A DNA stretch of 47,406 bases from Ectocarpus siliculosus (Eukaryota; Sar; Phaeophyceae; Ectocarpales; Ectocarpaceae), in contig FN648773.1 of NCBI GenBank assembly GCA_000310025.1, forward strand, positions 1-47,406, read 5' to 3'. A program made the position numbers and the translations under genes. Below the pieces are notes generated by a model that had not been told where the DNA came from, searched no databases, and worked only from the letters and a program-made list of their open reading frames with translations. This document shows positions 24,619-44,411 of the stretch, piece after piece. Position 1 is the stretch's first letter, and every line of letters begins with the position of its first letter.

Positions 24619-25472
24619 GTGTCGCCGCAGGGAAGCAAGCCTTCGCCATAGTAGGCTACGGCGACGTGAGGGTGTCCATCGGTTCTCGCGTTGGGACCAC
24701 AGACCTGCTGTTGAAACGGGTCGCTCATGTGCCGGAGCTGAATTACAACCTCGTGTCCCTCACAGCCCTTTTGAAGCAAACCAAGGGCCGCTTAGCCGCA
24801 GACGAGCGTGAGTTGGAGGTGTTCGTTGGTGGGGGGGAGTCGGTGTACTTCCCTCTATGGGGGGACCTGTTCGTTCAGACTGGTCACCGCATAGAGTCGG
24901 GTAGGGAACTAGCCTGTGCCATAATTGCTCCTGGTAACGCGAAAGCGAACCGCACCCCCGTTGACATCAACGACTTCCACTGCGCGCACGGCCACTCCCA
25001 CGAGGTGCTGCTGAAGAACACGGCGAAGCAGCAAGGGGTGACTCTGGTGGGCCAGCTCCGGGAGTGCATGGGGTGCTCGACGGCAAAGGGGCTATCCAAG
25101 CCCATCCCCAACAGGACGTCAACCCGAGCAGTTAAGAAACTGCAGAGAGTGTTCGTGGATTTGAGTGGGAAGGCAAGGGTGCAGAGCTTGGGGGGGAAGT
25201 GGTACACTCTCATTGTAAGGGATGACTGCACGAGGTGGAACCGCGTCTACTTCTTGAAAAACAAGTCAGACGCTGCAGAGGCATTCGAGAGATACCTAGC
25301 GGAAAACAGGGCAGACGGAGCCCCATCCGAGGTCATGGTCGTGCGGTCTGACAACGGAGGAGAGTTTTTCGAGGGAGAGTTCGGAAAGCTGTGCCGCAAG
25401 TATTGCATCAAGCAGGAGTTCACCCCCGCATACAGCCCAGAATACAACGGTGTAGCTGAGAGAGCACTCGGG
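24615..25472 (+). CDS. Copia protease remainder and integrase core
   Basis: The frame reads SVAAGKQAFAIVGYGDV, the second half of the copia protease, then a GAG-pre-integrase HHCC finger (HCAHGHSH...CMGC) and the integrase core. Catalytic residues are D182 (VFVDLSG), D246 (RSDNGGEF) and E282 (GVAERAL), with exact DD35E spacing. An extra G in a GGG run at 25470-25472 shifts the frame right after the catalytic glutamate. Out-of-frame coding continues to 25778 but is not homologous. The product would insert cDNA into the host genome. Confidence 0.85.
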
Positions 25473-25850
25473 ACTGATAAAGGATGCAGCACTAGCCGCC
25501 CGCATACAAGCGACGATTCTTTACCCCGAAGCACCAAGCTACCCCTCCCTTTGGGCCGAAGCCACAGCTTGGGCATGCAACGCCCTGAACTGCACCTCCA
25601 CCACATCCAACCCGGACAAGAAATCGCCGTACGAAATGTGGCACGGGCACCCACCTCCCCCAGAGGCGACGTACCCGTTCCTCAAACCCGCCGTATACAA
25701 GGTCAAGCGCACGCACAAGTCAGAGCCGAAAGCAAAAAAGTGTTTTTACCTCGGCCCTGGAATCAACACAAACCGTGATTGCGTACGCATCCTGAACGAA
25801 AAACGCCAAGCGATCACCACTCGCAACTTCATCCTGGCAATCTGTGCCCG
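25473..25850 (+). pseudogene. Copia integrase C-terminal part (shifted frame)
   Basis: After the +1 shift the frame reads GLIKDAALAARIQATILYP and continues through SPYEMWHGHPP, the conserved copia integrase C-terminal segment, to KKCFYLGPG. It loses frame again near 25850, where the next frame (25844 onward) takes over. It makes sense only as a continuation of the upstream integrase. Confidence 0.75.
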
Positions 25851-27184
25851 CCGCCCCGACCGCGCACCCCCAGCCGCTGCCTCCCATTGCAGAGGAGGAC
25901 GAGGAGCTCACGACTGGGGAGCACGAGGGCGGAGGGGGTGCGTCATGCCACGGTGGAGGGAGGGCGGAGGGAGAACCTGAGGATGGAGGTTTCCACCTTG
26001 ACACGACGGCAAACCCGGGGCCCGCGGAGCCGCCCGCGCGCGATGCGCCGGCGGCGCCGCCGGCCGCGCCCCAGGAGTCGGGCGCGGGCGACGCTGGCGA
26101 TGGCGCCCCCTCGAGCAGGGAGGGCGCGAGCGTCGCCCCATCTACCACGTCGACCGGGAGGGCCGATGTGGGCGGCGGCGAGGACGACCGCCGCAGCAGC
26201 AGCAGCAGCAGCAGCAGCAGCCGCGGTGGCGGCGGCAGCAGCAGCAGCAGCGGTGGCGGCAGCGACAGCGGCAGCGACACGGATATTCCGGCGCTCCGCG
26301 GGCCCGAGGAACGGAGGCTCGCCCGCTTTGGCGAGCCGGCCGAACTCACCAGCCGCCGACTCAGGGAGAACCCTCGCCGGAACACGAGGTACGAGTCGTC
26401 AACGAGTGCCGAAGGTCTGCTCGCCCGCCATGCATCGGCGGCCGGGCTGCCCACCCTGCCCATCACCAGCACGGAGGAGTACACCCACTGGATGCTCGCG
26501 TGTGTGGTCGACGTGGTGGAAGGGCTAGAGGCGAGGGCGGTGCAAGCGCTGCTGTGCGAGCGCGCGGAGGAGGCCAACATCGCGCGCCAAGAGGCAGAGG
26601 ACTTCCTGCTGGGAGCGGAGGACCTCGTGCTCAACTCTCCAGACGCCTTCGTGAGGGCCCTGGCGTCGACCGAGCTGAGTACAGAATCCCCCATAGGCAA
26701 GCGTCCGAGTGACGTTGAATCCCCCCCCATGACCGTAGCCGGCGTTGCCAAGTCTGTGTACAGAGAGGGGTGGGAACAGGCCATGAGGGAAGAGTTCGAT
26801 GGACACTTGGACACGGGAACGTTTTCATTCGTAGACGGTACGCCAGAGGGGCGTAGACCTGTGAGTTCTAAGTGGCGTTTTACTTGGAAGACGAACAAGG
26901 AGGGGAAAATCGAGAAGTTCAAAGCGCGTCTGGTCGCTAGGGGTTTTTCGCAAATTCCGAATGTGGACTACTTCTACTCATCCTCCCCTTGCCCATCATC
27001 CGCATCCATTAAACTGATGCTTGCGGTAGCCAATGAGAAATCATTGAAACTCAACCACTGGGATGTCAAGCAGGCGTTTACACACGCTAAGTTAGACGAG
27101 GATGTGTTCTTGAGGCTCCCCGCGGGGTGCGGGGAAAAATCCCACAAAGTTGTGAAGGCTGAGCGTGCTATTTACGGCTTGAAG
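25844..27184 (+). CDS. Copia linker and reverse transcriptase N-terminal half
   Basis: A long low-complexity linker (Ala/Pro/Gly-rich with poly-Ser runs encoded by AGC repeats at 26193-26275) precedes the copia RT: AMREEFDGHLDTGTFSFV, SSKWRFTWK, KARLVARGFSQ and the motif-A aspartate in HWDVKQAFTHAKLDEDVFL. At IYGLK an extra G at 27184/27185 breaks the frame. The original frame runs on to 27325 with unrelated residues. Confidence 0.85.
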
Positions 27185-28265
27185 GCAGAGCGGCAGGCAG
27201 TGGGGGTACCACGCTGCCGACACGCTTGTAGAAAACGGGTTCGAGCAGTGCAAGGCGGACCCGTGCGTCTTCCGCAAGATGAAAGACGGTGTCGTGGTGA
27301 TGATTATCGTGATTTATGTGGATGACATTCTGGTGGCTGGGTCTGATGATGATTGCAAGGAGTTGCTCGCTTCCCTCAACAAGGCATTCCCCACTAAAGA
27401 CCTTGGAGAGTGTGTGTGGTTCGACGGGTGTGCCGTTGAGAGAGACCTAGAGGCTGGGACCCTTAGAATCTCCCAAACCGCGTACATTGACAGCATCGTG
27501 AATCGCTTTGATGTGCAATCGACCTCCCCCATCCCTGCTTCCCCTGGTGCTGACCTAGGACCGAAGCGAGATGACGAAAGTGGAGGGGAGTGGCCGGTGA
27601 GGGAGGCCATCGGCAGCATGATGTGGGTGTCGACGTTCTCGCGCCCGGACATCTCGTTCGCTGTGCGTGCGGTAGCGCGCCACGCCCACGCCCCTGCCGA
27701 GAGGCACTGGAAGGCGATACGGAAGATCCTCGCCTACCTCAAAGAGACGAAGGACCTCGGGATCACCTACAAACGGGGATCGGGGCTGGGGCTGGCGGTG
27801 TACGTGGACGCTAGCTACGCCGACGCTGAGGATAGACGTTCGGTGTCAGGGCTGGCAACAACGGTTGGAGGAACCGTCATCAGCCACGGTAGCAAGACGC
27901 AAGCTATCGTATCTTTGTCGTCTACGGAGGCAGAGTACATTGCTGCCGGAGAGGGTGTGAAAGAAGCTTTGTTTGTGCGTGCAGTGCTTTCGTTTATTGC
28001 CCCAGAGACCAGCGGCGGTAGCATTCAGGTCCTTGAGGACAATCAGGGGGCCATGGCTTTGGTGCAGAACCCCCTTAGCTCAGCGCGTAGCAAGCACATC
28101 GACGTGCGGTACCACTTCATTCGTGGATTGTTTAGGTCGGGTGACATCTCGATCAAGTTTGTGTCGACGTCGGAGCAACATGCAGACATGCTCACCAAGG
28201 CTCTTAGCAAGAGCAACCTGCAGTACCACCGGAAAAAGCTGATGAATTTGCCGGAGCTTCTGTAG
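27185..28265 (+). CDS. Copia reverse transcriptase C-terminal half and RNase H
   Basis: The frame continues from the shift and contains the catalytic YVDD (VIYVDDILVAG), copia RT conserved segments (SMMWVSTFSRPDISFAV) and RNase H: the VYVDASYAD aspartates, SLSSTEAEYIA and EDNQGAMAL. It ends with the typical SKHIDVRYHFIR and HADMLTKAL, at a TAG 310 bases before the 3' LTR. The product synthesises cDNA and degrades the RNA template. Confidence 0.87.
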
Positions 28266-28575: not shown

Positions 28576-28829
28576 TGTTCGTGGGTCTACGGACATGGTT
28601 TGGATATGTTAGCCGTACGTACAAGTGTGACGCAGATGGTGTAGAACCTTTTAGGTAGGGGTACGGTGATGATGCACCGGGGCCCCCTTTTGTTGTGTGC
28701 AGCAGCCCTGCTGCCACTCCTCCTCTCTGAGCACGACAGCGCCCTGGGTACGGGCGTTGCCTCACCGTCTGAAGTTAATACACTACACAAACAATACCCG
28801 ATAAGTACGCGGAGTACGGCCGACAAACA
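28576..28829 (+). repeat. Copia 3' LTR
   Basis: 254 bp, identical by eye to the 5' LTR apart from one base, flanked by CATGT. Confidence 0.93.
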
Positions 28830-28834
28830 CATGT

Positions 28835-29111
28835 GATCGTGGTTGATCATGGTTATTTGGCGCCGTCGGATGCTATGACGTGACGTCATGCTAGATCAGG
28901 GCTTTATGCCGAGACATGTGCCTTCTGATCAGTGTGTGCGTACAGGCGATCTATGGTCGTGTGTGCGTGGGATATTGTGAGTTTAAGCGTTAATCAAGAG
29001 AAAGAGAACAACGGAAAGCAACAACAACAACCTGCTGCTGTGGTCGGACAAGAGAGTTCCACACAGCTCAAAGGTGATTGATTCTGAAGGAAGGGGTCAA
29101 ATACCATTACA
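28835..29111 (+). repeat. Chromovirus 5' LTR, second fragment
   Basis: Resumes the chromovirus LTR after the copia element, from GATCGTGGTTGATCATGG to ATTACA. It contains TGACGTGACGTCA at 28876-28888, also present in the 3' LTR. Compared with the 3' LTR there are a few substitutions, a CAA indel and a longer indel near GTGAGTT. Confidence 0.9.
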
Positions 29112-30701: not shown

Positions 30702-31778
30702 CGCAATCTCGTCTGTTGGCCCTCCACCCAGCTCACCGGCTCTAATGAGCATGGTTTACAGCAGGCTCGCACTTACCCTTCGGGGTATGGTTCGCAGAGC
30801 CCCTCGCTCACCGATCCTACGGGATTTGGTTCGACGCGAAACCTTCCCACCGACCCACAGGGGTTCGGTGCGGAGCACACGCTCACCGGTCCTTCGGGAA
30901 TTGGTTCGACGCGAAACTCTCCCACCGACTCACAGGGGTTCGGTGCGGAGCCCTCGCTCACCGATCCTACGGGATTTGGTTCGACGCGAAACTCTCCCAC
31001 CGACCCACAGGGGTTCGGTGCGGAGCACACGCTCACCGGTCCTTCGGGACTTGGTTCGCAGCACATGGCGCTCACCGGCTCGAATGAGCTTGGTTCCGAG
31101 CCCCAGCACGCCGGCCCTGCGGGGTACGGTCTGCCATACCAGCAGCAAGGGCTGTTGCTGAAACCACCACTGTCCATCGCTCGAGGTGGTTATGTGGTAC
31201 CGCCCCCGGCCCAGCCGTCATACAGCCAAATGGCGCAAGGACCGCCGTACCTCAGCCTCCGAACGGGGGATGAATTGTTCCTTGACATTCCGGTGTCTAA
31301 CATCGCGCACGTGCACCAGCAGGCCTTCGCAGAAGCATGCAGGATACCAGTCACCAAGGCGGCTACAGTGCTGACGACGATGTCAGAAAGCTCGGAGAGA
31401 CCTACGGTCACTCTCCGTGAATTCATGCATCACGTCGCTCATGCCCCCACGGCAGACGCCCCGTTAGTCGAATCGGTAACGCGTCTTCTGCACGGGCTTC
31501 GCGGAGGTTACGCTAACCTTACAGGTGGCTACCGACCGGCGGAGGTCAACTGGTACCTTCCCCCTTCGATTCTGCCAACGACGTTTGGTGCTTCTGCAGC
31601 ATTCGCCAAGCAGACGGGCGATTTCCGTGTCGTCACTCACCGCAAGGTGAAGAAGGAGCGAGCTACCGACAGCAGCAGCTCCCACAGCCGTGGCAGACGT
31701 GGTCGTGGTAGTGGTCGAGGTTCTTCCAGCAACCGTGGACGTGGCAACAATAACGGTCACCGTCAACGTGGTTCGTAA
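30702..31778 (+). CDS. Chromovirus Gag-like segment 1: 25-residue repeats and RG-rich tail
   Basis: The frame opens after a TAA at 30699 and has no ATG until 31065, so the true start is unknown. Four units of about 75 bp (30800-31060) encode alternating LTDPTGFGSTRNSPTDPQGF- and LTGPSGIGSTRNSPT-type repeats. A compact domain follows (SLRTGDELFLDIPVSNIAHV, TREFMHHVAHAP-like region), then a basic RG-rich tail (RGRRGRGSGRGSSSNRGRG) typical of RNA binding. It stops at 31778, and an RS-rich frame follows one shift later. Confidence 0.5.
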   Translation, partial: RNLVCWPSTQLTGSNEHGLQQARTYPSGYGSQSPSLTDPTGFGSTRNLPTDPQGFGAEHTLTGPSGIGSTRNSPTDSQGFGAEPSLTDPTGFGSTRNSPTDPQGFGAEHTLTGPSGLGSQHMALTGSNELGSEPQHAGPAGYGLPYQQQGLLLKPPLSIARGGYVVPPPAQPSYSQMAQGPPYLSLRTGDELFLDIPVSNIAHVHQQAFAEACRIPVTKAATVLTTMSESSERPTVTLREFMHHVAHAPTADAPLVESVTRLLHGLRGGYANLTGGYRPAEVNWYLPPSILPTTFGASAAFAKQTGDFRVVTHRKVKKERATDSSSSHSRGRRGRGSGRGSSSNRGRGNNNGHRQRGS

Positions 31779-31810
31779 GGGTCGCGCTCTTCCGCAGCTA
31801 GCGAAAGTGA

Positions 31811-32191
31811 CGCGTCGGCTTCCGTGGCCGCTATAGCAGCTCCAAGAGATCGAATCGAGGCAAACGTGGCAAGAAGCACTCTGGGTCCAACGGCCGCCAA
31901 GCTGAGGTCGCTGTGGAACGCAAGCCTTCGGCGACTAAAAGCGTCAGCAAGGAGGACACGAGTCGTGGCCGCCGTCGTAGCCGGAGTCATAGCAGGAGCT
32001 GTAGCCCACGACACCGCCGCGGGCACCGAAGCAGCGACGGCTCGGAGGCACCAGCCTATGAGGATCACTCCCCTGTGGAGATCTTTGACGCAAACCAACA
32101 GCACCTGGCCACCGATCTCCCACTGGAGGAGCGTCTGGACCAACCCCTGACAGCCCCGCGTGATGACAGGCAAGTACCGTTGTTGGGGTGA
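31811..32191 (+). pseudogene. Chromovirus Gag-like segment 2: RS-rich
   Basis: This frame is open from a TGA at 31808 to a TGA at 32189 and encodes GFRGRYSSSKRSNRGKRGKK followed by an Arg/Ser-rich stretch (RGRRRSRSHSRSCSPRHRRG) and an acidic end. It continues the basic tail of segment 1 after a frame shift, so it is probably the same ancestral protein. Confidence 0.45.
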
Positions 32192-32393
32192 TGTTGCAGC
32201 CAGCGACCACTCATTGATATCACGCAACAGTGCATTCGTAGGCCATAACGCCCAACCGTTGTCGTCAACGACTGCTCGTGCTCGCCAAGTAGAGATAGAA
32301 AAGGCTGAAGCGCTTGCAGAAGCTGCACGAATCAGAGAGATCAGTGCGAAGTACATCAAGACGAAGTTTAGGGATATTCGTATACAACCATCG

Positions 32394-33408
32394 ATCCCTT
32401 GGCCGGCAAACCTGAAACAGGCAGTGCCAACAGTTGTTAGATTCTATCAAGGCCGCAGCCTTAGATGTCTTGCAGCAGGCTGACCCTTTCATCGATTTTG
32501 ACAAATCCGATACGTGGGTTCGCGGGTGGGAAAACCCGCTGAAGAAAGCCATCATTAACGCCGTATCCCCAAACAAGCAAACCACTGGTGACCTTATCAG
32601 CTCCATCAATGGTATGTTTGTGCAGGTGAAGCAGCGTATGGACGACGGTATAAACGGAGGAGAAGCTTTCAAGCACCTTCTTCGTCTGATCGCGTCCCAC
32701 TTCAAGCATGAAGACCGTGGAGACGCCTTGACAACGCTGAATGCGTTCGGTGTTCCCAACGGAACTACGTTTGGAGAATTTTTGCGACAGTATCGTACTG
32801 CCGTGAACAACATCACGCACTATTCCATTCTTTTTAGCAACGAGACTTGGATTATCGGGATCACAAGGAATAAGATCAACGACCAGTTTTCTGTGATGAT
32901 GTCTGACTGTTTTCCGGGTGCAAAGCGTACCGCTGCAGAACCCTACAGTAGTCTGGATGAGATGTGGCGAGTGCTGAATGAGTTCACGACCTCTAAGGTT
33001 AAGGCTGAGAATGGCGAGCAATATGCTACGCTCTCGCTTAGTGGATTATCGTTGCATTCGCAAGGCGGTAGTCGTTCTCAAGGACGTTCGACGACGCAAT
33101 CGCAGCAGCCTTGGAGCTCTCAGGGAGCACGTAGCAAATCGGTCATGCGTGTTAAGGCAGAGCCAATTCATGATGTGTTTTGTGTTAGCAACGATGCTTG
33201 GCCGCTGGCCACCGATGATCATTGGGAGACAGTGCATGCCGTTGTTTCCAATGGTTTCAAACGTCAACTGCCCCCCCTTTGGACACCACTCCTTAGGACT
33301 AGAGCCGACCGAGCACAAGCGTTCAGCGCGAATGCTGGCCGTTGTTTAAACTACCACGGGTCTGGTCACTCTATCAAACACTGTGAACAACGCTTTCACC
33401 AATGCTAG
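32394..33408 (+). CDS. Chromovirus Gag capsid and degenerate zinc knuckle
   Basis: The frame includes a helical capsid-like region (MLDSIKAAALDVLQQADPF through EFLRQYRTAVNNITHYSILF and SSLDEMWRVLNEFTTSKVKA), as in Ty3/gypsy Gag. At residues 304-317 counted from 32434 it has CLNYHGSGHSIKHC, which fits CX2CX4HX4C except that the second cysteine is tyrosine. An extra C near 33392 shifts the frame; the matching continuation is at 33393-33835. The preceding sequence (32160-32400) carries another shift. Confidence 0.65.
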
Positions 33409-33835
33409 TGGTGTACTGAACCCAGATTTAGGTGCACTGACTGATGGTGATGACACGTTTCGCCTGTGGCAAGAGCGCTTGCGGTCCTGGAGGACTAAGC
33501 CTGCGACGGCCACAACACACGACTCACGCAACTCGAATGGCCAACAAAACCGGCGCCGTTCCCACAGACCAGCTCATAGAGTTCAATACGCTGGTAACGC
33601 TCCACACCCGCAACAATACACTCAGACGTGGCATCAACCGCCACCACAGGGCCTGCTGCAATCTAGTGCACCAGCCCAACAGCACACATTGGTAGCATAC
33701 CAGCCTAATGCAGGTACAGGTACTGCTCCAGCGTCTGCCACACACGCGCAGCCGGCGTTGCGAATCAACAGCCGACTCCCAGTAGACTCCAACCCAAATG
33801 CCCGCACTCCTGGAACGTATAGTGCTGGTAACTGA
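33393..33835 (+). CDS. Chromovirus Gag C-terminal linker
   Basis: Continues from the zinc-knuckle segment in the +1 frame as AFTNASGVLNPDLGALTDGD and is then Gln/Asn/Pro-rich without known motifs. It ends with an in-frame TGA at 33833, after which the same frame is open again from 33836 to 35668, so Gag and the NADAR protein may once have been one reading frame. Confidence 0.5.
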
Positions 33836-33850
33836 CAGCCCAACGGCGGC

Positions 33851-35668
33851 TTGTCGTTACTCCCCGACCCGCCGATGGCAAAACAGGGAGCAGCTAGATA
33901 TGTGTCGCAGGATGCTCGTATAGTAGGTACGGTCGAGTGTACCACTCCTGTTCCTACAACCGACACTTCCGCTACAAGCGGTAGTGCTTCGGCCTCATCG
34001 GGTGAAGATGGTGTAGCCCACACTCCCGATCACGGCAGCTTCAGCGCTGTCGTCAATGCATATACCCCAAGGTTAGGAACTCAAGAAGTGACCTGTCTTG
34101 AAGGCAGCTCCCCGAGTTTTATCACAGCTCGAGCAGCTTGCACACACGGCAGCTTCAGCGCTGCCGTCAGTACATATACCCCAAGGTTAGGAGCTCAAGG
34201 AGCGACCTGTCTTGAAGGCGGCTCCCCGAGCTTAAACAAAGCTCGAGCAGCTTGCACAACGCACGATTACACCACGTTGCCGCCCGCAAACCAGCCTGAA
34301 CCATTACGTGTTGGCTACACGAATGCACGGGTCGGTTTGAGGTGCGGGTACGGAAGGTCGGGATTGTCGAGCATGCCCAAGGGGTCCGCTCAGACGTCCT
34401 CGTGGAAGACCGTTAGGACACCTACGTTGTCGACAATACATGGAGTATCGCCGGGTTTAGCCACCTCGAGCGATGCTTTGGACATGTCCACGGCGTACGG
34501 GTCATCGACAGCCTGCGGCGATACAGCCGATGGAACTCGAGACGGTAATAAAAGTCACTCGCCGCACGGTGAAGCGAGTATGACCGATTGCGTTGAAAGA
34601 AATACGCGTCGATTTCCCGTGGTTTGCGATTCGCGGAGTACCAAAACTGAGCTGTCCCCAACCGCGACCACGGAGGTGCTGACAATACCGTATTCGGAGG
34701 ACGCTCCGATTGCGCCCCTCGCTGAACAAACAGCGAAAAATTCGCGACCCTCGTCAAGGGAGGTCCGTCATGTCTCCAACGTGATGGATTCCAGCGAAAG
34801 CACTACAGACTATACACCCCCACCGGGTTGCGCTGTTGGTAGAGGAGAGGACTTGGGGAAACAGACATCCCCCTCCTCCGCTATAGCTGGTATTCGTATC
34901 TACCCTCCTCCTCCGACCGACGCCAGGGGTTCACCACCAGCGTTTGATCCGAGCAAGGAGTACTGCACACCTGACATGGTGTTGTTCTGGCAAGCCCCGT
35001 CGGTTTTCTCGCAATGCACGCCCTCCATCTTTACTGTAGATGGTGTGGAATACTCTTGTGGAGAACAATTCTTCGCGGCTGCCAAGGCTCGTCTCTTTGG
35101 CGACCAAGATACGTTGCGGCGGATTATGCGTGTTTCTGACCCGATTAAACATAAGCGTTACGGACGCCAAGTTAAAGGGTTTGACGAAGCTGTTTGGGAG
35201 CGCGAGCGTGAAAACGTGGTGCGTGTCGCCTCCTACTACAAATTTTCGCAAAATCCCGCTATGCGACAACATCTTTTGGGCACCGGCCACAAAATGCTCG
35301 TCGAAGCTAGCCCATTCGATGCCATATGGGGCATTGGACATCGCGCGGATGATCCTGCTGCAATCCAACCCTCTTTATGGCGGGGCTCCAATCTGCTTGG
35401 CAAAAGCCTGCAGGTTGTTCGAGACCTACTCCGAGAGGACGCGCCGACGCCGACACTTCCACCACAAGTTTTGTCCGACGCTCAGCTCCGGGATACAATA
35501 CATGAGGTTAACCCTGCAACGCAAGAGCGTACTTCGACGGCTGCCGCCGAGGAGGCCGCCCCGTCGTCAGGTTACCGCATAAAATCAGCGCATGTTCCAA
35601 GGGATCACAGCGCTGAAGTTCTCGCGGTTACGTCCGCTGAGTATCATGAGGAAGATCGTGTACCGTAG
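33851..35668 (+). CDS. Retroelement-borne NADAR (YbiA/RibX, DUF1768) domain protein
   Basis: About 605 residues in the same frame as the Gag linker upstream. Residues 1-370 are disordered, with two copies of a 38-residue repeat (HGSFSA...TPRLG...CLEG). Residues about 377-527 (34979-35431) match the NADAR fold in order: FWQAPSVFSQ, TVDGVEYSCGEQFFAAAKA with the conserved Glu, SDPIKHKRYGR, KFSQNPAMRQHLLGTG, EASPFDAIWGIGH and GSNLLGKSLQVVRDLL. Known NADAR proteins cleave N-glycosidic or ADP-ribosyl bonds, for example on riboflavin intermediates or ADP-ribosylated guanine. Here it lies between Gag and protease, so it would be part of the polyprotein. Substrate and role in the element are unknown. 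It ends with TAG, and the protease follows in the -1 frame. Confidence 0.85.
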   Translation: MSLLPDPPMAKQGAARYVSQDARIVGTVECTTPVPTTDTSATSGSASASSGEDGVAHTPDHGSFSAVVNAYTPRLGTQEVTCLEGSSPSFITARAACTHGSFSAAVSTYTPRLGAQGATCLEGGSPSLNKARAACTTHDYTTLPPANQPEPLRVGYTNARVGLRCGYGRSGLSSMPKGSAQTSSWKTVRTPTLSTIHGVSPGLATSSDALDMSTAYGSSTACGDTADGTRDGNKSHSPHGEASMTDCVERNTRRFPVVCDSRSTKTELSPTATTEVLTIPYSEDAPIAPLAEQTAKNSRPSSREVRHVSNVMDSSESTTDYTPPPGCAVGRGEDLGKQTSPSSAIAGIRIYPPPPTDARGSPPAFDPSKEYCTPDMVLFWQAPSVFSQCTPSIFTVDGVEYSCGEQFFAAAKARLFGDQDTLRRIMRVSDPIKHKRYGRQVKGFDEAVWERERENVVRVASYYKFSQNPAMRQHLLGTGHKMLVEASPFDAIWGIGHRADDPAAIQPSLWRGSNLLGKSLQVVRDLLREDAPTPTLPPQVLSDAQLRDTIHEVNPATQERTSTAAAEEAAPSSGYRIKSAHVPRDHSAEVLAVTSAEYHEEDRVP

Positions 35669-35671
35669 GTG

Positions 35672-36285
35672 GTGTTGTTACAGTTGATGACGCTTCATTT
35701 ACGACTCGAGTCAAAATCCACGCTGGGCCAGCCAAATCACAATATGGTTGCGCCGCTCTGCTCGATTCAGGATCACCGGCCACATTCATCAACAGCAACG
35801 CTGTCGTTACCCTCAAAGCCATGGGAGCCATCTCAGAGGCTTGCATCTCGCACGGTAACTCACGTTCTTGGGGAGGTTTTGGTAAATCCGAGTCTCTTCA
35901 GACGTCTGATACAGTCCGTCTGAGTGTGCAATTTTTCCACGGTGATGCGCCTTCGGCTTCTCTTGCCGTTTGGGCGCACATCGTCCCTGCAAACACCATG
36001 CAGTTTCCCATCCTATTGGGACGCGATAGTTTCATGCGATTTAACACTCGCACATACCGTATGTTGCCTCCGAGGCCACCGGACAATCGCGTTTTTGGTG
36101 AATATACGCTTGCCCGTCAGCATGATTCTGGTGCGGTCGCGTATGTGCCCGATTTCACAGCCCCGGCGGACCAATTCCAGCTCCGTTATGCAGGGCCAAC
36201 GGGTACTTCATTGTCAGACGACCACCAAATGATTGAAGTCAATTTGGTGCGTTCCAACGGTACACCGGCTCTGACCGGTCAATAA
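35672..36285 (+). CDS. Chromovirus aspartic protease
   Basis: The frame is open from just after the NADAR stop. It reads GGVVTVDDASFTTRVKIHAG and then the active-site motif LLDSGSPATFI (Asp codon at 35764), followed by FPILLGRDSFMRFNTRTY, the conserved second half of retroviral-type proteases (ILLGRDFL-like). It ends with an in-frame TAA at 36283 right before the RT frame. It would cleave the Gag-Pol polyprotein. Confidence 0.78.
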
Positions 36286-36294
36286 CTTGTCGAC

Positions 36295-37690
36295 ATGTTG
36301 CCTGATTTTTGGTCGAACGAAGAAATCTTTGTCTCCGACGGACGTCAGTTTGTGCCGCTCGCGGGTGCTGCAGAACTTGAGCCAGGAGACTTGCTCGGTA
36401 CTGCTGCCGCCCCGCTGATGCGCGTCCCGGTAGAGCATTTAGAACAACAGTTTAGTGACGAAGCTGATACTTCATGTTCGGTGCCTGGACCTTTTTTGGG
36501 TTCTACCGAGGATAACGCGGACAGGACCGTCGATCCGCAGGTGCGTTGCCACGATCCCTTCGTGCACAACCTACGATCCACCGATCCTCCTGTGCCGGAC
36601 CCAGGGAAATCACCCCCTGCGGCCCCTGCCCCCGTTCACACTTCGCCCTCGCCGCCACCACAGCATGTGATGGAGCGGTTGAGCGCTGATCAGAGAGTTA
36701 GCTTTGAGTCATTGTGGAATCGCTTGCCGCCTCACCTGAAGTTGGTTAAGTTTGATTTACACGGTCCTGGTTGGTCAGCAGAGGTCATCACAGAACTTGG
36801 TGATCTTTTGCATGATTTCCAAGACGTGTTTTCCACATCCTCGACGGATTTAGGGTCCTGTTCCCTGATGCCGTTTGAGATCAAAGTACCTCCGGATTGT
36901 CCCCCTGTGACGTCCAAACCGTACCGTATGAATCCTTTGGTTGCAAAGCAAGTCGATGCCATTCTGGACCAGTATCTAGCTGCTGGCCTAATTCAGCACT
37001 CGACCTCTCCTTATGCCAGCCCCATCGTGGTTATACCAAAGAAGTCTGGTGGAATACGCATCACGGTTAACTACAGAAAGTTGAACCATATCAGCAGCTT
37101 TGGTCAACTTCCCATCCCCCGAGTCGACGAGATTCTAACGAAACTCAACAGAGGTTCGATTTTCTCGCTATTCGATTTCACGGGTTCCTTCCACCAGACC
37201 ACTGTCCACAAGGACACTATCCCCCTTACGGCCTTTGCGACCCCCACTCGTTTGTTCGAATGGCTCCGCATGCCGATGGGTGCTAGCCAATCCGCAGGCC
37301 ACTTTGTAAAAGTGATTAACGAAGTAATCAAAGGACTCGATGGAGTCGAGGCATACCTCGATGACGTCGTTGTTTTTGACGAAGGCCCGCTGCAGCATGT
37401 CCGTAATATGCGCACGCTCTTCGAACGGTTGAGAAAGTACAACCTCAAACTTTCTCCCTCGAAAGCCACCATCGGTACCACCAAGGCTGACTTCTTGGGG
37501 CACGCCATATCTTCGAAAGGTGTCCTCCCCAACGCCCGTAAAGTAGCCGCCCTGGCAGGTATGCCCATGCCTACGACCGTCAAGCAACTCAGGTCACTCA
37601 TGGGTGGTCTGAGCTACTACCGACGTTCCCTCAGAGACATGGCCAAGCGTGTGAAGTCCATTACGCACTTGCTCAAAAAGGTATTCCCTT
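36295..37690 (+). CDS. Chromovirus reverse transcriptase
   Basis: In frame with the protease, separated only by the TAA at 36283. After a Pro-rich linker come SKPYRMNPL, GLIQHSTSPYASPIVVIPKK and VNYRKLNHIS (motifs 1-3), FSLFDFTGSFHQ (motif A; FDFTGSFHQ replaces the more usual LDL-x-GYHQ), LRMPMGASQSAGHF (motif B) and YLDDVVVF at residues 354-357 (motif C). FLGHAISSKGVLPN and the connection SLMGGLSYYRR follow. Frame is lost at about 37690 (AAAAAGGT), and RNase H continues in the -1 frame. Confidence 0.9.
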
Positions 37691-38246
37691 CGCTTTCACG
37701 AGCGACATGGAAACAACTGTTCGCAGCCTACTGGCTGAGCTCGCGAAACCGCCCATTTTAGTGTTTCCTGATTGGGACGCTATCGCGGACGGTACACGCC
37801 CTTTACGTCTTTGCTGTGACGCCAGCTCCGACGGTCTCGGCGCCGCGCTGGAGCAAGAGCAGAAAGACGGCTCGGTACGGCCGATCGTTTTCATCAGCAG
37901 AGCCACGCTCGACGCTGAACGCAACTGGACCGCTCTCGATCTCGAAGCAGGAGCCGTTGTATGGGCGATCAAGCGTCTCCGCGAATACCTTCGTGGCACA
38001 CACTTCCGCATCTATTCCGACAATAAGGCGCTGGATAGTTTGTCAAAAATCAGCGGGCACAACCCACGCGTCCAACGCTGGATTGAGTTCCTTGAAGCAT
38101 ACAGCTACACGTTGGAGTACCGACGAGGTGCCTCCAACGGAAACGCTGACATACTGCCTCGTCTGCCGATTGAGCCTACTACCGCCGACATCAACGGTAA
38201 CAGTAGTTTGAAGTCCCCAGAAGACGTTGGTGTGTATCTGATCTGA
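37691..38246 (+). CDS. Chromovirus RNase H
   Basis: Reads GIPFAFTSDMETTV, then LRLCCDASSDGLGAALEQ with the first catalytic aspartate, PIVFISRATLDAERNW (Glu in NWTALDLEAGAVVWAIKRL) and HFRIYSDNKALDSL with a further aspartate: the RT-linked RNase H of Ty3/gypsy elements. An in-frame TGA at 38244 ends it, and the integrase frame follows in the same frame. Confidence 0.88.
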
Positions 38247-38291: not shown

Positions 38292-40331
38292 TTGGGTGGG
38301 CTGGCGCCCCCGAGCGAGAACGCCGCTTTGGGTGGGCTACCCCTCACGTCCGATGATTTTGCGGATTTTCGCAAACACGGGCCTCGAATGAGGATTGACG
38401 ACCTTGATGCTCCTGCAGGAGAATCTTTCGCTCGTGTTTTTCCGTACGTCAATGCGCGAGGACCTTTGCGACACCTTGCGGACGATCGTGCATTGTCTTG
38501 CACCGACCACTCCGTATTTGCTGTGCCTGAGGTTATTTCCGCTGCAACCCAGAAAAAACAGGGCGCTGTGCCGGCACTCCGGTCTTCAGCTTCTCCTGTT
38601 GTGTCTCCGATGAGACCATTGTATTGGGACACCGCCACGGTTTACGGACCGTCTGCGAGACCCCACACGGATACAGCTGCATTTGCGCTCCCTGTCCACG
38701 ACACACAGACCGCCGACGATAACTCTCGGTTGTCCCCTGTCGTGTCTCTTGCGACCGCAACTGTCGACGCCGGCTCCCACTCTGATCGTTTGGATGCCGC
38801 CGACTCATTGCCGCCGCCTTCGACCTCTCGGTTGCAACCGCATCGTATTGATCCGTCGGAACTGATCTCTACTCGTACGCGTCGCAGAACCGCGGCTGCT
38901 GCGGGTCAGCCTCAACCCGATGTAAACTACGGTTTCGGTCCTGATTTGTCGATCCCCCCACACGCTCCGCGTGCTTCTCGTCGTCAAACACGAGTGGCGC
39001 CAGCTGACACCACGACTGAGCCTGCTGTCGAACCTGTCCCAACGGTGCCCATAGCGCCGCCGGAGACGGTTATCGACGCCCCTACGGGTCCTCTGTTGGG
39101 TTTGTCACAACCGGCTGCTGCAGCTGGTAAGGCAACGCCCGCAGTGGATTCCATGGTCCTCAATCCTGCAGAGTTAGAATTCCGTGAGTCCGTCGAACGC
39201 TACACGCGTGCTGATTGGGCGCGGGAACAGCAGAAAGAGCCGGTGTGTGAAGCCACCATCCGCTACATTCTCCTCAAACGCCCTCAGAGTCTACCTGTCG
39301 ATTTCTTTGCCAGAGTGTCATATCACTCCAGGCATAGACCATCGTTGGAGGATATTCGAGAGCTTGCAGATAAAGGACGCCTCGTCACTGACGATCGCCT
39401 TTGCCTCTTGGTACGAAAGAATACCAAGCCCCCGGTCTCTTCTGACCGTCCCGGAGGACGAGCTGCACGTCTGTTGAATGACGAACCCACTCGTATTTAC
39501 GTGCCCATGTTAGTGCGACCTTGGGTCATGCAAGCTTGTCATGCCAACGCCCTCTGCCACCTTGGTACCGCTCGCACGCTCAGCTTGCTTGAGAGGTTTT
39601 ACTGGTGGATTGGGATGGGTATCAGTACTCGTTGGTGGATTCGGCGATGTTTGAAATGTCAGGCCCGCAAAACTGCGCGCCAGACTATTCGCTGGCCGAT
39701 TCTCACGATCCCTCTGCCTTCGGCACCAGGGGTCGCGATTAGCGTCGACTACTTTGGTCCGCTTCCCACAACTCCGCGAGGTTTCTCGTATATTTTGCTA
39801 TTCACTCACCGTTTCAGTCGGAGAGCCGATATGTACGCAGTGACTGACGCCGAGTTCACAGCTGAAGGTACAGCTGACGTCCTTGTCAATAAATACATGC
39901 CTGTTTGGGGATGCCCCCTCAGCATTCTTTCTGACAACGGATTGCAGTTTTGCTCCAAACTTTCGGTTGCCGTCCTAAAATTGCTACGCGTCCGAAAAAT
40001 TACGACGAGCGCGTACCACCCTAGCGGCAACGGAGGAGTTGAGCGCGTGAACCACACCATGGCCCAGATGCTGGCTATGGTTGTGAACGAACGACAAGAT
40101 GATTGGGACATTCATCTCCCTCATGTTGAATTCGCGTACAACAACTCCGTTAGCGCTGCAACAGGATTGGCGCCCAATGAGGTGCATATGGCGCGCCTTC
40201 CCAGGTTTCCACTGACCGTTTTTGACAACATTTACGCTCGAGGTCACCAGTCGCTTGCCCGCGATCAGCTCGAGTATTGCAACCTTGCCGCCGATCGGCA
40301 ACGGCGCTCCTACGAGCTAGTGCGTGAATAA
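38292..40331 (+). CDS. Chromovirus integrase
   Basis: 679 residues in the RNase H frame. A 270-residue Pro/Thr-rich linker precedes the HHCC zinc finger (HANALCH...CLKC) and the catalytic core. The catalytic triad is D486 (SVDYFG), D548 (LSDNGLQF) and E584 (GVERVNHT), with exact DD35E spacing. EFAYNNSVSAATGLAPNEV is the conserved end of the core. An in-frame TAA at 40329 interrupts the C-terminal part, which resumes immediately in the same frame. It would integrate the cDNA. Confidence 0.9.
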   Translation: MGGLAPPSENAALGGLPLTSDDFADFRKHGPRMRIDDLDAPAGESFARVFPYVNARGPLRHLADDRALSCTDHSVFAVPEVISAATQKKQGAVPALRSSASPVVSPMRPLYWDTATVYGPSARPHTDTAAFALPVHDTQTADDNSRLSPVVSLATATVDAGSHSDRLDAADSLPPPSTSRLQPHRIDPSELISTRTRRRTAAAAGQPQPDVNYGFGPDLSIPPHAPRASRRQTRVAPADTTTEPAVEPVPTVPIAPPETVIDAPTGPLLGLSQPAAAAGKATPAVDSMVLNPAELEFRESVERYTRADWAREQQKEPVCEATIRYILLKRPQSLPVDFFARVSYHSRHRPSLEDIRELADKGRLVTDDRLCLLVRKNTKPPVSSDRPGGRAARLLNDEPTRIYVPMLVRPWVMQACHANALCHLGTARTLSLLERFYWWIGMGISTRWWIRRCLKCQARKTARQTIRWPILTIPLPSAPGVAISVDYFGPLPTTPRGFSYILLFTHRFSRRADMYAVTDAEFTAEGTADVLVNKYMPVWGCPLSILSDNGLQFCSKLSVAVLKLLRVRKITTSAYHPSGNGGVERVNHTMAQMLAMVVNERQDDWDIHLPHVEFAYNNSVSAATGLAPNEVHMARLPRFPLTVFDNIYARGHQSLARDQLEYCNLAADRQRRSYELVRE

Positions 40332-40850
40332 CACGCACTCACAGTTTCCCGTATGGAAAGACGGAACTGGAAACTGTCTGATGCCTTACACAAACTACCT
40401 GTTTACGCTACCGGTGGTTGGGTGTGGGTCTACAGCCATTTGGCTACCATCCGCCAAGGTGCCAAACTCACTTTCAAGGCCCGCGCAGACGCTGACTCCC
40501 AGGTACTCAAGAAGAAGCTGTCCTTGAATTGGACAGGTCCTTTTAAAATCCTCGTAGTCGGTCCTTGCAACAAGGCTCCCGATGGCAGTCCGGTGGCTGA
40601 CAAGCTCCTGTATCTGGATCTTCCCTCCGATATGCCCGGAGTGGATGCCAAGCACCGAGTTTCTGTCGCTCGTTGCAAACCGTGTGCGAACCCACACGAC
40701 AGTGACGACATGCCTCGGTTTTTGCTTGCAGGCCTCACGCAGTATGTTCTCAACAACTACACGACGAAGTCTCCGCCGTACCATGTTACCGCGGACGATG
40801 TTTCGGCGCCTGTCCGCAGGCTCGAGGTTGAGAAAATCACGGGACACTAG
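40332..40850 (+). CDS. Chromovirus integrase C-terminal domain
   Basis: Same frame as the integrase after the TAA. WVWVYSHLATIRQGAKLTFK and KLSLNWTGPFKILVVGP resemble the GPY/F module of Ty3/gypsy integrases, followed by LLYLDLPSDMPGVDAKHRVS and the start of the chromodomain (RRLEVEKITGH) up to a TAG at 40848. Confidence 0.8.
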   Translation, partial: HALTVSRMERRNWKLSDALHKLPVYATGGWVWVYSHLATIRQGAKLTFKARADADSQVLKKKLSLNWTGPFKILVVGPCNKAPDGSPVADKLLYLDLPSDMPGVDAKHRVSVARCKPCANPHDSDDMPRFLLAGLTQYVLNNYTTKSPPYHVTADDVSAPVRRLEVEKITGH

Positions 40851-41555
40851 TCGGTTCGAGGACGTGGCGGCGTTATCGCAGTCATGTAAGAGACCCACTG
40901 GAAAGGTCTTCTGCGGCCCTCGTGGGAACGAGAAATGGACCTCCAACACTCCCGAAAACAGATTCTTCTGTATTGGGCTGGTACACCCGACCAACACCGG
41001 CAGACTAACCGTTTGTATCGTCGCATGCGCATTGGCGCAGCGGAACGTGAACTGTCTCGCATCAAAGGCGAGCGGTCCTCGTCGCCTGGGTACGAATATG
41101 TTCCCCGCGATGTTTGGGCCCGCTGTTTTCGCAACACCGTGCTGCCTGTTGGCGCACACTTCTGGTACAAGGCTCAAGACGCTCTATGGTGGCTAGGGAA
41201 AATCTCCGGACATACTCCAACTACAAACGTCTTCTTCGTTCGCTTCCTGGATGACCCTGGACCTGTCAAGATCACCCTCTCCCCTTCGCGCTACACGACA
41301 GCTTTGGGAGCTGTTTGTGGTTCTTGGTGCCTTCAGCTGCACCGAAGTAGTCCCTTCATGCGAGGTATCTTGCGCAATGTAGACGAGTCGCGTGGTACGG
41401 CTATAGATGCTGTTGCCCTTGTTTTATGTGTATGTATATGTATGTGTATATGTTTGTGTGTTACATGTTTGTGTTTATGTATGTTTGTCTATATGTTTCT
41501 AGCTCGCCCTCTCGATCTGTTTTCGAGACTGGCTATTGCTTCTGTATGTTTCTAG
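40851..41555 (+). CDS. Chromodomain and C-terminal tail of chromovirus integrase
   Basis: Still in the same frame, interrupted by TAG (40848) and TAA (40887). Across these stops VEKITGH, RGRGGVIAVM, THWKGLLRPSWE and a final ILLYWAG helix follow the chromodomain pattern, with the aromatic TxW and the KGxxxxxWE signature. Such domains guide integration to marked chromatin. A further region of about 130 residues (VPRDVWARCFRNTVLPVGAH, FFVRFLDDPGPVKITLSPSRY) has a Tudor-like SH3 feel but is unassigned. The last residues run into a repeat and are probably not meaningful. Confidence 0.65.
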
Positions 41556-42592: not shown

Positions 42593-42901
42593 TGTTATGG
42601 TATTTGGAGGTAGACATGTGATCGTGGTTGATCATGGTTATTTGGCGCCGTCGGATGCTATGACGTGACGTCATGCTAGATCAGGGCTTTATGCCGAGAC
42701 ATGTGCCCTTCTGTTCAGTGTGTGCGTACAGGCGATCTATGATCGTGTGTGCGTGGGATATTGTGAGTTGGTTTGGAAAGCGTTAATCAAGAGAAAGAGA
42801 ACAACGGAAAGCAACAACAACCTGCTACTGTGGTCGGACAAGAGAGTTCCACACAGCTCAAAGGTGATTGATTCTGAAGGAAGGGGTCAAATACCATTAC
42901 A
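42593..42901 (+). repeat. Chromovirus 3' LTR
   Basis: 309 bp, TGTTATGG to ATTACA, uninterrupted, containing CATGTGATCG (the copia target in the other LTR) and TGACGTGACGTCA at 42661-42673. Confidence 0.9.
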
Positions 42902-42914
42902 ACTCCCGATGAGC

Positions 42915-44212
42915 GCATAGGAACCGGGGGACCCTGAAAAACAAACATGAAAAATAAAAAAAGAAAGACGCGAGAACAAAACAAGAGCCAGACGCGACAG
43001 ACTTCAGGGAGGAGGCAAAAGAGAGCATGGAAAAACCACCACCGTCGTCGCCGCTCGCTCTGGACCGGTGGAAGCTCTCACTCACGTAGAACTGCATATA
43101 TATGCAGCAAACAATAGGTATAGGGCCCCAGTCCATTGCTTGACAGAAAGAGGCAGCACCCATCGCTTCACATGCAGCAGCCGGATACACGGGTAGTCTC
43201 TTACTCAGCAAGAAGCAACGACTGCGGTTGGCGTCCGATCTTGTTGGGACGATGGGACCCCATCGGCGACAGGCGAGAGATAGAGAGAGGTAGATTAAAA
43301 GAAGAGGGCGGAGAGAAGACAAGACGTTCGTTAACTATCTACATATGGAGAAGACACTCACTCTCGTCCCTCTGGCCCACCGCAGGCTGTCAGACATGAT
43401 GTTTGTGTATCGAACGGCGATATCCGATGTGGGCTCAGCAACAACAAACAACACAACAAACAAATACATGCATAGTCGATATTGTATATACGGGTTGGAG
43501 TAAACGTGTTCTGTGAGCGCTGATTTGAAGTGAAGACAAAAAAAAAACAAAACATACTGTAGTCTAGTCGCCGTTTGCGAACGGTGGACTTTCTATCTTT
43601 TGCGGAAGGAAGTGAGAACTAAAACATGACTATGTAGTCTATTACCTCAACACGCTTGCTTGCCGTCCGCGATAGACGCGCACCGCTGCACGAACGAGCA
43701 GACAAACTACTGTTGGTTATTGTGCTGCCATCTACAGTAGTACTTTCTCGCTCAAATTACGACTGACGGTGCAGAAGACTCAAGGTAAGGAAGCAACACG
43801 CTTACCGATGCATACCACCCATGCATGCAGCAAAAAACAAACAAACTAAGGCAGACCGTTTGTTGTTGTTTGGCTCTTCAACTGTGCTGCCGTTGCTCTT
43901 CACGGATAACAACACTGGGAAAAAAGTGAGAGACGCGCATCGCTTACGAGAGCAACGCGTGCAGCCCAAAACGACAGAAGAGACGACAACCTTACGACCT
44001 TTACCTTTCTTTGCAGCACGTTCCGATCATATTCTGCAGCAACGCAACCGCACGTGCACAGCAGCATCATGATGTATGTATGTGTAACAGTCACTCAGGA
44101 AGAAAATCACAAACAAACGAAGGCAAAAAAAATAAAGGTTGTGTGTGGGCCGCAGCACGCAGCTCTTTCGCTGTTCAACCGCGGCCGTTTCCATGGCGAA
44201 ACAGACAAGGTA
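42915..44212. repeat. Segmental duplication, copy A
   Basis: Aligns along its length with 44412-45556: shared segments include GCCAGACGCGACAG, CTCTTACTCAGCAAGAAG, GGCCCACCGCAGGCTGTCA, AGTCTAGTCGCCGTTT and the common end ATGGCGAAACAGACAAG. Copy A carries a SINE fragment that copy B lacks. Frames in it are not conserved between the copies, so no gene is called. Confidence 0.75.
43491..43553 (+). mobile_element. 5'-truncated SINE copy
   Basis: CGGGTTGGAGTAAACG, then GCTGATTTGAAGTGAAGAC and an A-rich tail match the 3' end of the full SINE at 45553-45846 in the opposite orientation. It is absent at the equivalent site of duplication copy B, so it inserted into copy A. Confidence 0.7.
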
Positions 44213-44411
44213 CTACAGTGAAGGCCGACTCTTGCCGGGAAAAAGAAGGCGGAAGCTGCTCAAACTCGGGGATGGGTCAATGATTTGCGATTCCCCACCC
44301 AACGGATATCGATCTTCAGATTTGCGAAACTTGCGGGGCCCAGTCATAGACGTGGATGGCAAGAAAACACCCCCTCCCAACAAAAAATTAAACTGAAATG
44401 ATGGGTGGGTG

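What the first reader, a model, noticed from the sequence alone, without database searches (positions are those of the whole stretch)
34979..35431. NADAR (YbiA/RibX) enzyme domain carried inside a Ty3/gypsy chromovirus
Between Gag and protease the element encodes a domain that follows the NADAR fold motif by motif (GEQFF with the conserved Glu, SDPIKHKRYGR, SPFDAIWGIGH, GSNLLGKSLQVVRDLL). NADAR proteins act on N-glycosidic or ADP-ribosyl bonds, and some reverse ADP-ribosylation of nucleic acids. Capture by a retrotransposon could mean protection of its RNA or cDNA against a host ADP-ribosylation or NAD-based defence, or a role in particle chemistry. I do not know of a described chromovirus with this domain, but could not search.
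Basis: partly seen in the sequence, partly recalled or inferred. Interest (0 to 1): 0.92.

Follow-up and report, generated by a model that had tools for sequence, protein, structure and literature searches.

The report
Retrotransposon carrying an ADP-ribose-removing enzyme domain
A jumping gene (LTR retrotransposon) in what is likely a brown-alga genome carries, in many copies, a NADAR enzyme domain with a preserved active site that would likely strip ADP-ribose tags from the element's own RNA or DNA; such elements were reported from the brown alga Ectocarpus in 2025, but what the domain does there is untested.

Summary
Confirmed. Window 34979-35431 encodes a NADAR domain (PF08719, E 5.6e-45; predicted fold matches Phytophthora NADAR 8BAU, TM 0.86). 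It lies after Gag and before protease, in N-terminal Pol of a degraded ~14 kb Ty3/gypsy element (LTRs 1.4% diverged). At least 150 NADAR places exist in this 189 Mb genome (capped list); 147 of 150 lie beside protease, RT or integrase pieces of the same lineage. Fifty full-length domains fall into five families. Nine of eleven ADP-ribose-site residues are kept in 48-50 of 50. Between families synonymous sites are saturated while pN is 0.23-0.35; NADAR and RT distances correlate (Mantel p 2e-4). New here: an in-frame UGA-C between Gag and Pol in all five families, so NADAR is predicted to be made by stop-codon readthrough as part of Gag-Pol. A divergent chromodomain follows the integrase. NADAR-bearing Gypsy elements were already described in Ectocarpus (PMC12477816), so this is a new member of a known kind. 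Best mechanism, untested: a packaged guanine-ADP-ribosyl hydrolase protecting element RNA or cDNA. The donor is unresolved.

The parts
28829..29111 (+). 5' LTR (about 283 bp)
   Evidence: direct repeat with 42614-42901; 276 of 291 alignment columns identical, 11 gap columns, 4 mismatches; no convincing target-site duplication seen
30985..33835 (+). ORF1/Gag region (left limit approximate), broken in this copy; ends at the UGA 33833-33835. Gag homology shared with the other families: 32434-33405
   Evidence: 18 of 20 fetched 10-kb relatives have the Gag homology upstream of NADAR; relatives L014 and L018 are open over the corresponding stretch
33833..33835 (+). UGA followed by C at the Gag-Pol junction, predicted readthrough stop
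   Evidence: found at the corresponding place in 20 of 23 loci examined, all UGA-C, 5 of 5 families
33836..34978 (+). N-terminal part of Pol between the UGA and NADAR, with a tandem pair of 114-bp repeats at 34031-34258
34979..35431 (+). NADAR (YbiA-type) domain
   Evidence: PF08719 E 5.6e-45; model against 8BAU TM 0.86
35821..36282 (+). protease-region homology; no Pfam hit, named by position, conservation and an LLDSGSPATF motif read by eye just upstream of it in relative L021
   Evidence: matched in 20 of 20 fetched 10-kb relatives
36895..37680 (+). reverse transcriptase core
   Evidence: PF00078 E 5.1e-23 in ORF 36295-37761; genome search
37707..38243 (+). RNase H
   Evidence: PF17917 E 1.5e-31
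38292..40331 (+). integrase ORF (H2C2 zinc binding and rve core)
   Evidence: PF17921 E 7.6e-13, PF00665 E 9.8e-9
40536..40544 (+). GPF of a GPY/F-type motif after the integrase core (motif name recalled, read by eye)
   Evidence: translation
40818..40994 (+). divergent chromodomain, two stops in this copy
41070..41372 (+). conserved C-terminal domain, weak Tudor-like resemblance
   Evidence: PDB profile hits Pcl and PHF19 (recalled as Tudor domains) at E 0.23-0.53, not significant; AlphaFold model unusable, pLDDT 48
42614..42901 (+). 3' LTR

Best explanation
A Ty3/gypsy LTR retrotransposon lineage in what is likely a brown-alga genome carries, in the N-terminal part of Pol between Gag and protease, a NADAR domain with a conserved active site that likely acts inside the element's particles as a guanine-ADP-ribosyl hydrolase, removing ADP-ribose from the element's RNA or cDNA. 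Shown: domain identity and a confident predicted fold; the same architecture in many copies; preserved ADP-ribose-site residues; purifying selection; shared history with RT; a UGA-C between Gag and Pol in all five families. Inferred: NADAR is made only when ribosomes read through the UGA, as Gag-NADAR-protease-RT-integrase, and is therefore packaged at Pol stoichiometry. Inferred: its substrate is ADP-ribosylated guanine in element nucleic acid, put there by a host or competitor ADP-ribosyltransferase. Untested: enzyme activity and benefit to transposition.
For: Fold and family. Breadth: 118 of 150 NADAR places have same-lineage RT within 6 kb downstream (median 1489 nt), 131 of 150 have RT or integrase, and 16 of the remaining 19 have protease, RT, integrase or C-terminal pieces (one of the 16, L060, on two short integrase pieces only). 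Order NADAR-PR-RT-RH-IN in 20 of 20 10-kb loci, Gag upstream in 18 of 20. Site residues mapped on 8BAU: in 50 full-length copies E43 is kept in 50, K50 48, K75 48, R79 50, W89 48, R93 49, E125 49, D130 49, W133 50; 10 of 11 site columns are in the at-least-96% class against 65 of 150 columns overall, hypergeometric P 0.001. Selection: between families pS 0.73-0.88, pN 0.23-0.35, 48 of the 50 rows used. Descent with RT: Spearman 0.77, Mantel p 2e-4 over 14 rows, three of them near-copies of family A. UGA-C junction: 20 of 23 loci, 5 of 5 families, in frame with Pol in the one copy per family checked; first Met of Pol at codon 14, 47, 37, 221 and 381 in A to E, so a shared internal start is unlikely. 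NADAR biochemistry from papers: Phytophthora NADAR hydrolyses guanine-ADPr DNA (PMC11543638); the NADARs tested reverse guanosine-ADPr RNA (PMC11833690). Host ADP-ribosyltransferases exist: four exon-sized PARP hits over the cut-off. Parallel: positive-strand RNA viruses carry NADAR in polyproteins (PMC9503650; structure hits to nidovirus polyproteins).
Against: No activity, expression or transposition data. Y84 is F in 50 of 50 copies and D86 is variable. In E. [quoted passage not shown] The 50 copies are biased to high Pfam scores. No DarT-like guanine transferase was found in this genome (PF14487, 0 matches). dN/dS between families is only bounded, because synonymous sites are saturated; within families the ratio is 0.14-0.56. 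Readthrough is inferred from sequence; the 90 nt after the UGA do not fold clearly better than shuffles (z -0.36 to -1.49). Family D's junction rests on one copy.
Confidence: 0.5

Rival explanations
1. The NADAR domain acts on small molecules (riboflavin-pathway intermediates as proposed for bacterial and plant NADARs, or free and cyclic ADP-ribose signals), and the element uses it to alter host metabolism or signalling rather than to clean its own nucleic acid.
For: [quoted passage not shown] The conserved residues concern the ADP-ribose part and would fit either kind of substrate.
Against: Embedding in Pol beside RT, with a UGA-C before Pol in all five families, predicts low, particle-bound amounts, a poor design for a metabolic enzyme. 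RNA viruses with polyprotein-embedded NADAR are argued to target macromolecular ADP-ribosylation.
Confidence: 0.2
2. The domain has an RNA-processing or RNA-repair role in handling the genomic RNA, as Dinatale et al. suggest, not tied to ADP-ribosylation defence.
For: Suggested in PMC12477816 for Ectocarpus and oyster elements; NADAR is linked to RNA repair in PMC9503650.
Against: The chemistry described in the passages read is removal of ADP-ribose from guanine and N-glycosidic cleavage; those passages report no direct RNA-processing assay.
Confidence: 0.17
3. Structural use only: the NADAR fold serves as a linker or nucleic-acid binder in Gag-Pol, and catalysis is irrelevant.
For: Y84 replaced by F in all 50 copies and D86 variable.
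Against: E43, K50 and E125 are kept in 50, 48 and 49 of 50 copies, and site residues are enriched among near-invariant columns.
Confidence: 0.08
4. The domain is a passive passenger, a host or bacterial gene fragment caught once and decaying.
For: The window copy is itself broken; 4 of 50 full-length NADAR copies have a stop.
Against: At least 150 places, five diverged families and purifying selection.
Confidence: 0.02

Closest known systems
NADAR-bearing Gypsy lineage of Ectocarpus sp. 7 (e.g. Gypsy-12_Ec32; Dinatale et al. 2025, PMC12477816)
   Same: [quoted passage not shown] all families of that lineage carry NADAR (section 5 part 1 and passages seen). Named proteins of Ectocarpus sp. CCAP 1310/34 group with families B, D and E here, 95% in NADAR for D
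   Different: Its main text does not contain 'readthrough', 'stop codon' or 'frameshift', and the parts I read do not test active-site residues or selection; its consensus sequences and supplements were not seen, so I cannot say whether family A is one of its named families
Tx1 LINE ORF1 with NADAR-like domain in Crassostrea gigas (reported in PMC12477816)
   Same: retrotransposon with a YbiA-family NADAR domain
   Different: non-LTR element, domain in ORF1, called divergent there; not examined here
Positive-strand RNA viruses with NADAR in polyproteins (nidoviruses and others; PMC9503650)
   Same: NADAR embedded in the replication polyprotein of an RNA-stage replicator (passages); predicted-structure matches include Yellow head, Gill-associated and Ingleside virus proteins
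   Different: RNA viruses without RT or integrase; identities of those named hits 20-28%
Orchid Ty3/gypsy elements with an AlkB m6A demethylase (PMC9289625)
   Same: a nucleic-acid 'eraser' domain captured by a Ty3/gypsy lineage; catalysis shown in vitro there (passages)
   Different: m6A demethylase on a separate ORF, plants
Fission-yeast Ty3/gypsy elements Tj1, Tcry1, Tosmo1-3 (PMC10085805)
   Same: in-frame UGA-C between Gag and Pol (passages)
   Different: fungi; NADAR is not mentioned in those passages

Membership tests
NADAR superfamily, YbiA type | significant match to PF08719 over the whole profile | tested here: met
   E 5.6e-45, profile positions 2-163 of 163
NADAR superfamily, YbiA type | NADAR fold | tested here: met
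   predicted only: AlphaFold2 pLDDT 96.8; Foldseek 8BAU TM 0.86, YbiA TM 0.81
NADAR superfamily, YbiA type | Glu (E43), Lys (K50) and the YbiA-class Glu (E125) | tested here: met
   E, K and E in the window; 50, 48 and 49 of 50 copies
NADAR superfamily, YbiA type | hydrolysis of guanine-ADP-ribose | not testable with these tools
   needs purified protein
Ty3/gypsy (Metaviridae) LTR retrotransposon | LTRs and the order PR-RT-RNase H-integrase | tested here: met
   the protease is by position, conservation and a motif read by eye (no Pfam hit)
NADAR-bearing Gypsy lineage (Dinatale et al. 2025) | Gypsy with NADAR in N-terminal Pol | tested here: met
   grouping with Ectocarpus sp. CCAP 1310/34 proteins
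Chromovirus | C-terminal chromodomain on the integrase | tested here: inconclusive
   divergent: PF00385 in 6 of 7 members, best E 5.7e-5; the one member shown in full scored 13.1 bits against a cut-off of 25.1; MPP8 E 0.082
Chromovirus | RT falls in the chromovirus clade | not tested
   no reference RT set was used; PMC12477816 states that the Ectocarpus chromodomain lineages are not phylogenetically chromoviruses
DarTG1-type toxin-antitoxin pair | NADAR next to a DarT gene | tested here: not met
   PF14487 gave 0 matches in the whole genome, six frames

The most novel reading that the evidence does not exclude
Brown algae mark retroelement RNA or cDNA with guanine ADP-ribose as a defence, and this Gypsy lineage is an endogenous counter-defence: it packages its own de-ADP-ribosylating enzyme in every particle, dosed by UGA readthrough. 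That would be an LTR retrotransposon that erases ADP-ribosylation and would expose an unknown eukaryotic nucleic-acid ADP-ribosylation immunity.
Probability: 0.2. Interest if true: 0.87.

Novelty: new member of a known kind. Interest (0 to 1): 0.5.

Why it matters
Among the hydrolase families tested, only NADARs reversed guanosine-base ADP-ribosylation of RNA (PMC11833690), and their role across eukaryotes is called unclear (PMC11125620). A retrotransposon lineage that has kept the active site through synonymous-site saturation implies a selected need for that chemistry in algal cells. It makes the question directly testable: look for guanine-ADP-ribose on retroelement nucleic acids. It also places retrotransposons beside positive-strand RNA viruses, large DNA viruses and phages as carriers of NADAR.

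Tried and rejected
Host-gene fragment in one copy: rejected. Donor: a tree of 72 NADARs puts all 22 Gypsy rows plus four unlabelled fragments on one side of a branch (87/81, not starred), beside standalone proteins of which the named ones are bacterial, but AU tests do not reject the host-like gene L066 joining them (p 0.59, log-likelihood 3.6 higher), nor oomycete 8BAU (p 0.264) or a EukProt protein (p 0.226); seven rows, L066 and 8BAU among them, are flagged as long branches. So the donor is unresolved. DarT in the genome: 0 matches. Structured readthrough stimulator: 5 of 5 sequences tested gave z above -1.5. Tudor identity of the C-terminal domain: AlphaFold pLDDT 48, discarded, PDB profile hits not significant. 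NADAR-less members of the lineage: 27 of 146 RT places had no NADAR hit within 6 kb upstream (against a capped NADAR list); three of them (C11:745099, C63:212238, C24:670637) do have a partial or stop-bearing NADAR match 1.56-1.70 kb upstream; the other 24 were not resolved. Target-site duplication: only a 4-bp chance-level match. Rfam and tRNA scans of the window: nothing. Viral contigs: one scan, close relatives only, three loci at 38-43% identity.

Full report
WHAT IS THERE. The window segment 34979-35431 translates to a 151-residue NADAR domain: Pfam PF08719, E 5.6e-45, 154 bits against a cut-off of 35.1, nearly the full profile. The best solved relatives by sequence are the Phytophthora nicotianae NADAR 8BAU (E 3.7e-17) and E. 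coli YbiA 2B3W (E 8.7e-10). An AlphaFold2 model from 45 sequences has mean pLDDT 96.8, and its only PDB matches at E 0.001 or better are 8BAU (TM 0.86) and YbiA (TM 0.81). Among predicted viral structures 52 match at E 0.001 or better; those listed include giant viruses, phages and nidovirus polyproteins.

THE ELEMENT. LTR-like direct repeats lie at 28829-29111 and 42614-42901, with four mismatches and 11 gap columns over 291 alignment columns. Between them are Gag homology, NADAR, protease-region homology, RT (PF00078), RNase H (PF17917) and integrase (PF17921, PF00665). After the integrase come a GPF motif (read by eye), a divergent chromodomain at 40818-40994 and a conserved domain at 41070-41372. 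PF00385 Chromo matches 6 of 7 members of an alignment of the chromodomain region, best E 5.7e-5; the best PDB profile hit is MPP8 at E 0.082. The last domain resembles Pcl and PHF19 (recalled as Tudor domains) only weakly (E 0.23-0.53), and its model is unusable (pLDDT 48). The window copy is degraded: its coding stretches change frame several times and the chromodomain has two stops.

NOT A ONE-OFF. The window's own genome (189 Mb, 492 contigs) gives 150 NADAR matches, a cap, since 150 of 230 candidates were scored. Of these 150, 118 have same-lineage RT within 6 kb downstream on the same strand (median 1489 nt) and 131 have RT or integrase. I fetched the other 19: 16 have protease, RT, integrase or C-terminal pieces nearby (L060 on two short integrase pieces only), and three do not (L058, L063, L066). 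L058 clusters with family C and L063 is 87-95% identical to the window domain in pieces; L066 looks like a host gene, with a GT splice donor after ...LLATGDK and its second half about 1 kb downstream. In 20 of 20 10-kb loci the order is NADAR-PR-RT-RH-IN, with Gag upstream in 18 of 20. From 59 places with letters (window included), nine domains under 435 nt were dropped; the 50 others cluster at 80% identity into five families: A (window, 13 copies), B (4), C (13), D (10), E (10), with B-E representatives at 53-67% identity to the window. The three RT places at only 44% identity, of 146, had no NADAR hit upstream.

ACTIVE SITE AND SELECTION. Residues at the ADP-ribose site of 8BAU named in section 12 of PMC11543638 are E43, K50, K75, R79, Y84, D86, W89, R93, E125, D130 and W133; the same section says in one place that K75 protects the pyrophosphate and in another that it does not touch the ligand directly. 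Mapped by the alignment, the window is identical at nine; Y84 is F and D86 is E. Over the 50 copies E43 is kept in 50, K50 in 48, K75 in 48, R79 in 50, W89 in 48, R93 in 49, E125 in 49, D130 in 49 and W133 in 50; position 84 is F in all 50 and position 86 varies. The sample is weighted to high Pfam scores. Ten of the 11 columns are in the at-least-96% class against 65 of 150 columns overall (P 0.001). With 48 of the 50 rows (two stop-bearing E rows left out), pS between families is 0.73-0.88 (saturated) and pN 0.23-0.35; within families the ratio of summed dN to dS is 0.14-0.56, which mixes decay after insertion with selection. NADAR and RT distances over 14 rows correlate at 0.77 (Mantel p 2e-4); three of the rows are near-copies of family A. 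Together this says that the domain descended with Pol and was kept as an enzyme-like fold.

EXPRESSION. At the Gag-Pol junction a UGA followed by C stands in 20 of 23 loci examined: 18 of 21 (window plus 20 10-kb loci) and both family E stretches (L071, L072). By family: A 12, B 2, C 3, D 1, E 2. The three misses (L016, L023, L028) were sought only by ungapped comparison with the family A junction. Pol follows in the same frame in the one copy per family checked (L021, L020, L027, L022, L071); in two damaged copies (L009, L010) it does not. The first Met of Pol is at codon 14 (A), 47 (B), 37 (C), 221 (D) or 381 (E), so a shared internal start is unlikely. UGA-C junctions with programmed readthrough are discussed for fission-yeast Ty3/gypsy elements (passages of PMC10085805). 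The following 90 nt fold only slightly better than shuffles (z -0.36 to -1.49, 5 sequences). I infer, not show, that NADAR is produced as part of Gag-Pol and packaged.

ORIGIN. In a tree of 72 NADARs the 22 Gypsy rows and four unlabelled fragments sit on one side of a branch (87/81, not starred) beside standalone proteins of which the named ones are bacterial, but grouping them with the host-like gene L066 is not rejected (p 0.59) and is even slightly better; 8BAU and a EukProt protein are not rejected either. A single capture is the simplest reading; the donor is open. Related NADAR-RT proteins occur in Ectocarpus sp. CCAP 1310/34 (five named: P0124-P0126, P0136, P0137), in several unnamed assemblies and in one EukProt species (P0141). 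The host is therefore likely Ectocarpus or a close brown alga; I did not identify it directly.

WHAT IS KNOWN. Dinatale et al. 2025 (PMC12477816; section 5 part 1 and passages seen, supplements not) report that all families of one of four Ectocarpus Gypsy lineages carry a YbiA-family NADAR domain in N-terminal Pol, suggest horizontal transfer, and note NADAR in oyster Tx1 LINEs. Searches of this library for NADAR with retrotransposon (7 papers), YbiA with retrotransposon (1), NADAR domain with transposable element (1), a six-term search (20 of 1,015 listed) and NADAR with brown alga (20 of 80 listed) showed, by title and abstract start, no other paper on NADAR in retrotransposons. The main text of PMC12477816 does not contain 'readthrough', 'stop codon' or 'frameshift'. 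NADAR biochemistry: PMC11543638 (section 12 and passages), PMC11833690 (passages), PMC11125620 (part 1 of 6 and passages). NADAR in RNA-virus polyproteins: PMC9503650 (passages). Orchid AlkB-Gypsy as a parallel: PMC9289625 (passages).

VERDICT. A real, conserved, active-looking NADAR domain in a likely brown-algal Gypsy lineage; a member of a kind already in print. New details are the active-site and selection evidence, co-inheritance with RT and the UGA-C junction. The most likely role is a packaged guanine-ADP-ribosyl hydrolase (confidence 0.5). Against it stand the lack of any activity data and the absence of a DarT-like writer in the genome; PARP-type transferases are present (four exon-sized hits over the cut-off), but whether they modify nucleic acid here is unknown.

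Noticed in passing
window 22933-28265: A Ty1/copia-type element directly upstream: weak copia-type gag (PF14223, under its cut-off) with zinc knuckle, Pol_BBD, integrase core and split RVT_2.
   Followed up: no
L066 1-2600 (G000:C24:330834-333433): Probable host NADAR gene with an intron inside the domain; its two pieces are 42% and 53% identical to the Gypsy domain and keep the E, K and E residues.
   Followed up: partly
G000:C3:3913787-3914242 (L051) and G000:C489:435177-435536: NADAR places lying in extremely long open frames (10,887 and 6,365 codons); possibly the element next to a repeat array.
   Followed up: no
window 30726-31100: 75-bp (25-codon) tandem repeat in the region upstream of the Gag homology.
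   Followed up: no
window 34031-34258: Tandem pair of 114-bp repeats (38 codons, 90% identical) in the N-terminal Pol linker before NADAR.
   Followed up: no
window 42921-44656: Two diverged direct repeats (75% and 86%) just downstream of the 3' LTR, spacing about 1.48 kb, perhaps the LTRs of another element.
   Followed up: no
proteins P0130, P0142, P0143: Large multidomain proteins with NADAR together with ADP-ribosylglycohydrolase, PfkB and HTH (P0130), a DprA-like domain (P0142), or FHA and a sub-threshold AN1 zinc finger (P0143).
   Followed up: no
protein P0144: 1301-residue protein with NADAR (38% to family D) and a sub-threshold RT_RNaseH hit (E 0.046): possibly a further, distant NADAR-bearing retroelement.
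   Followed up: no
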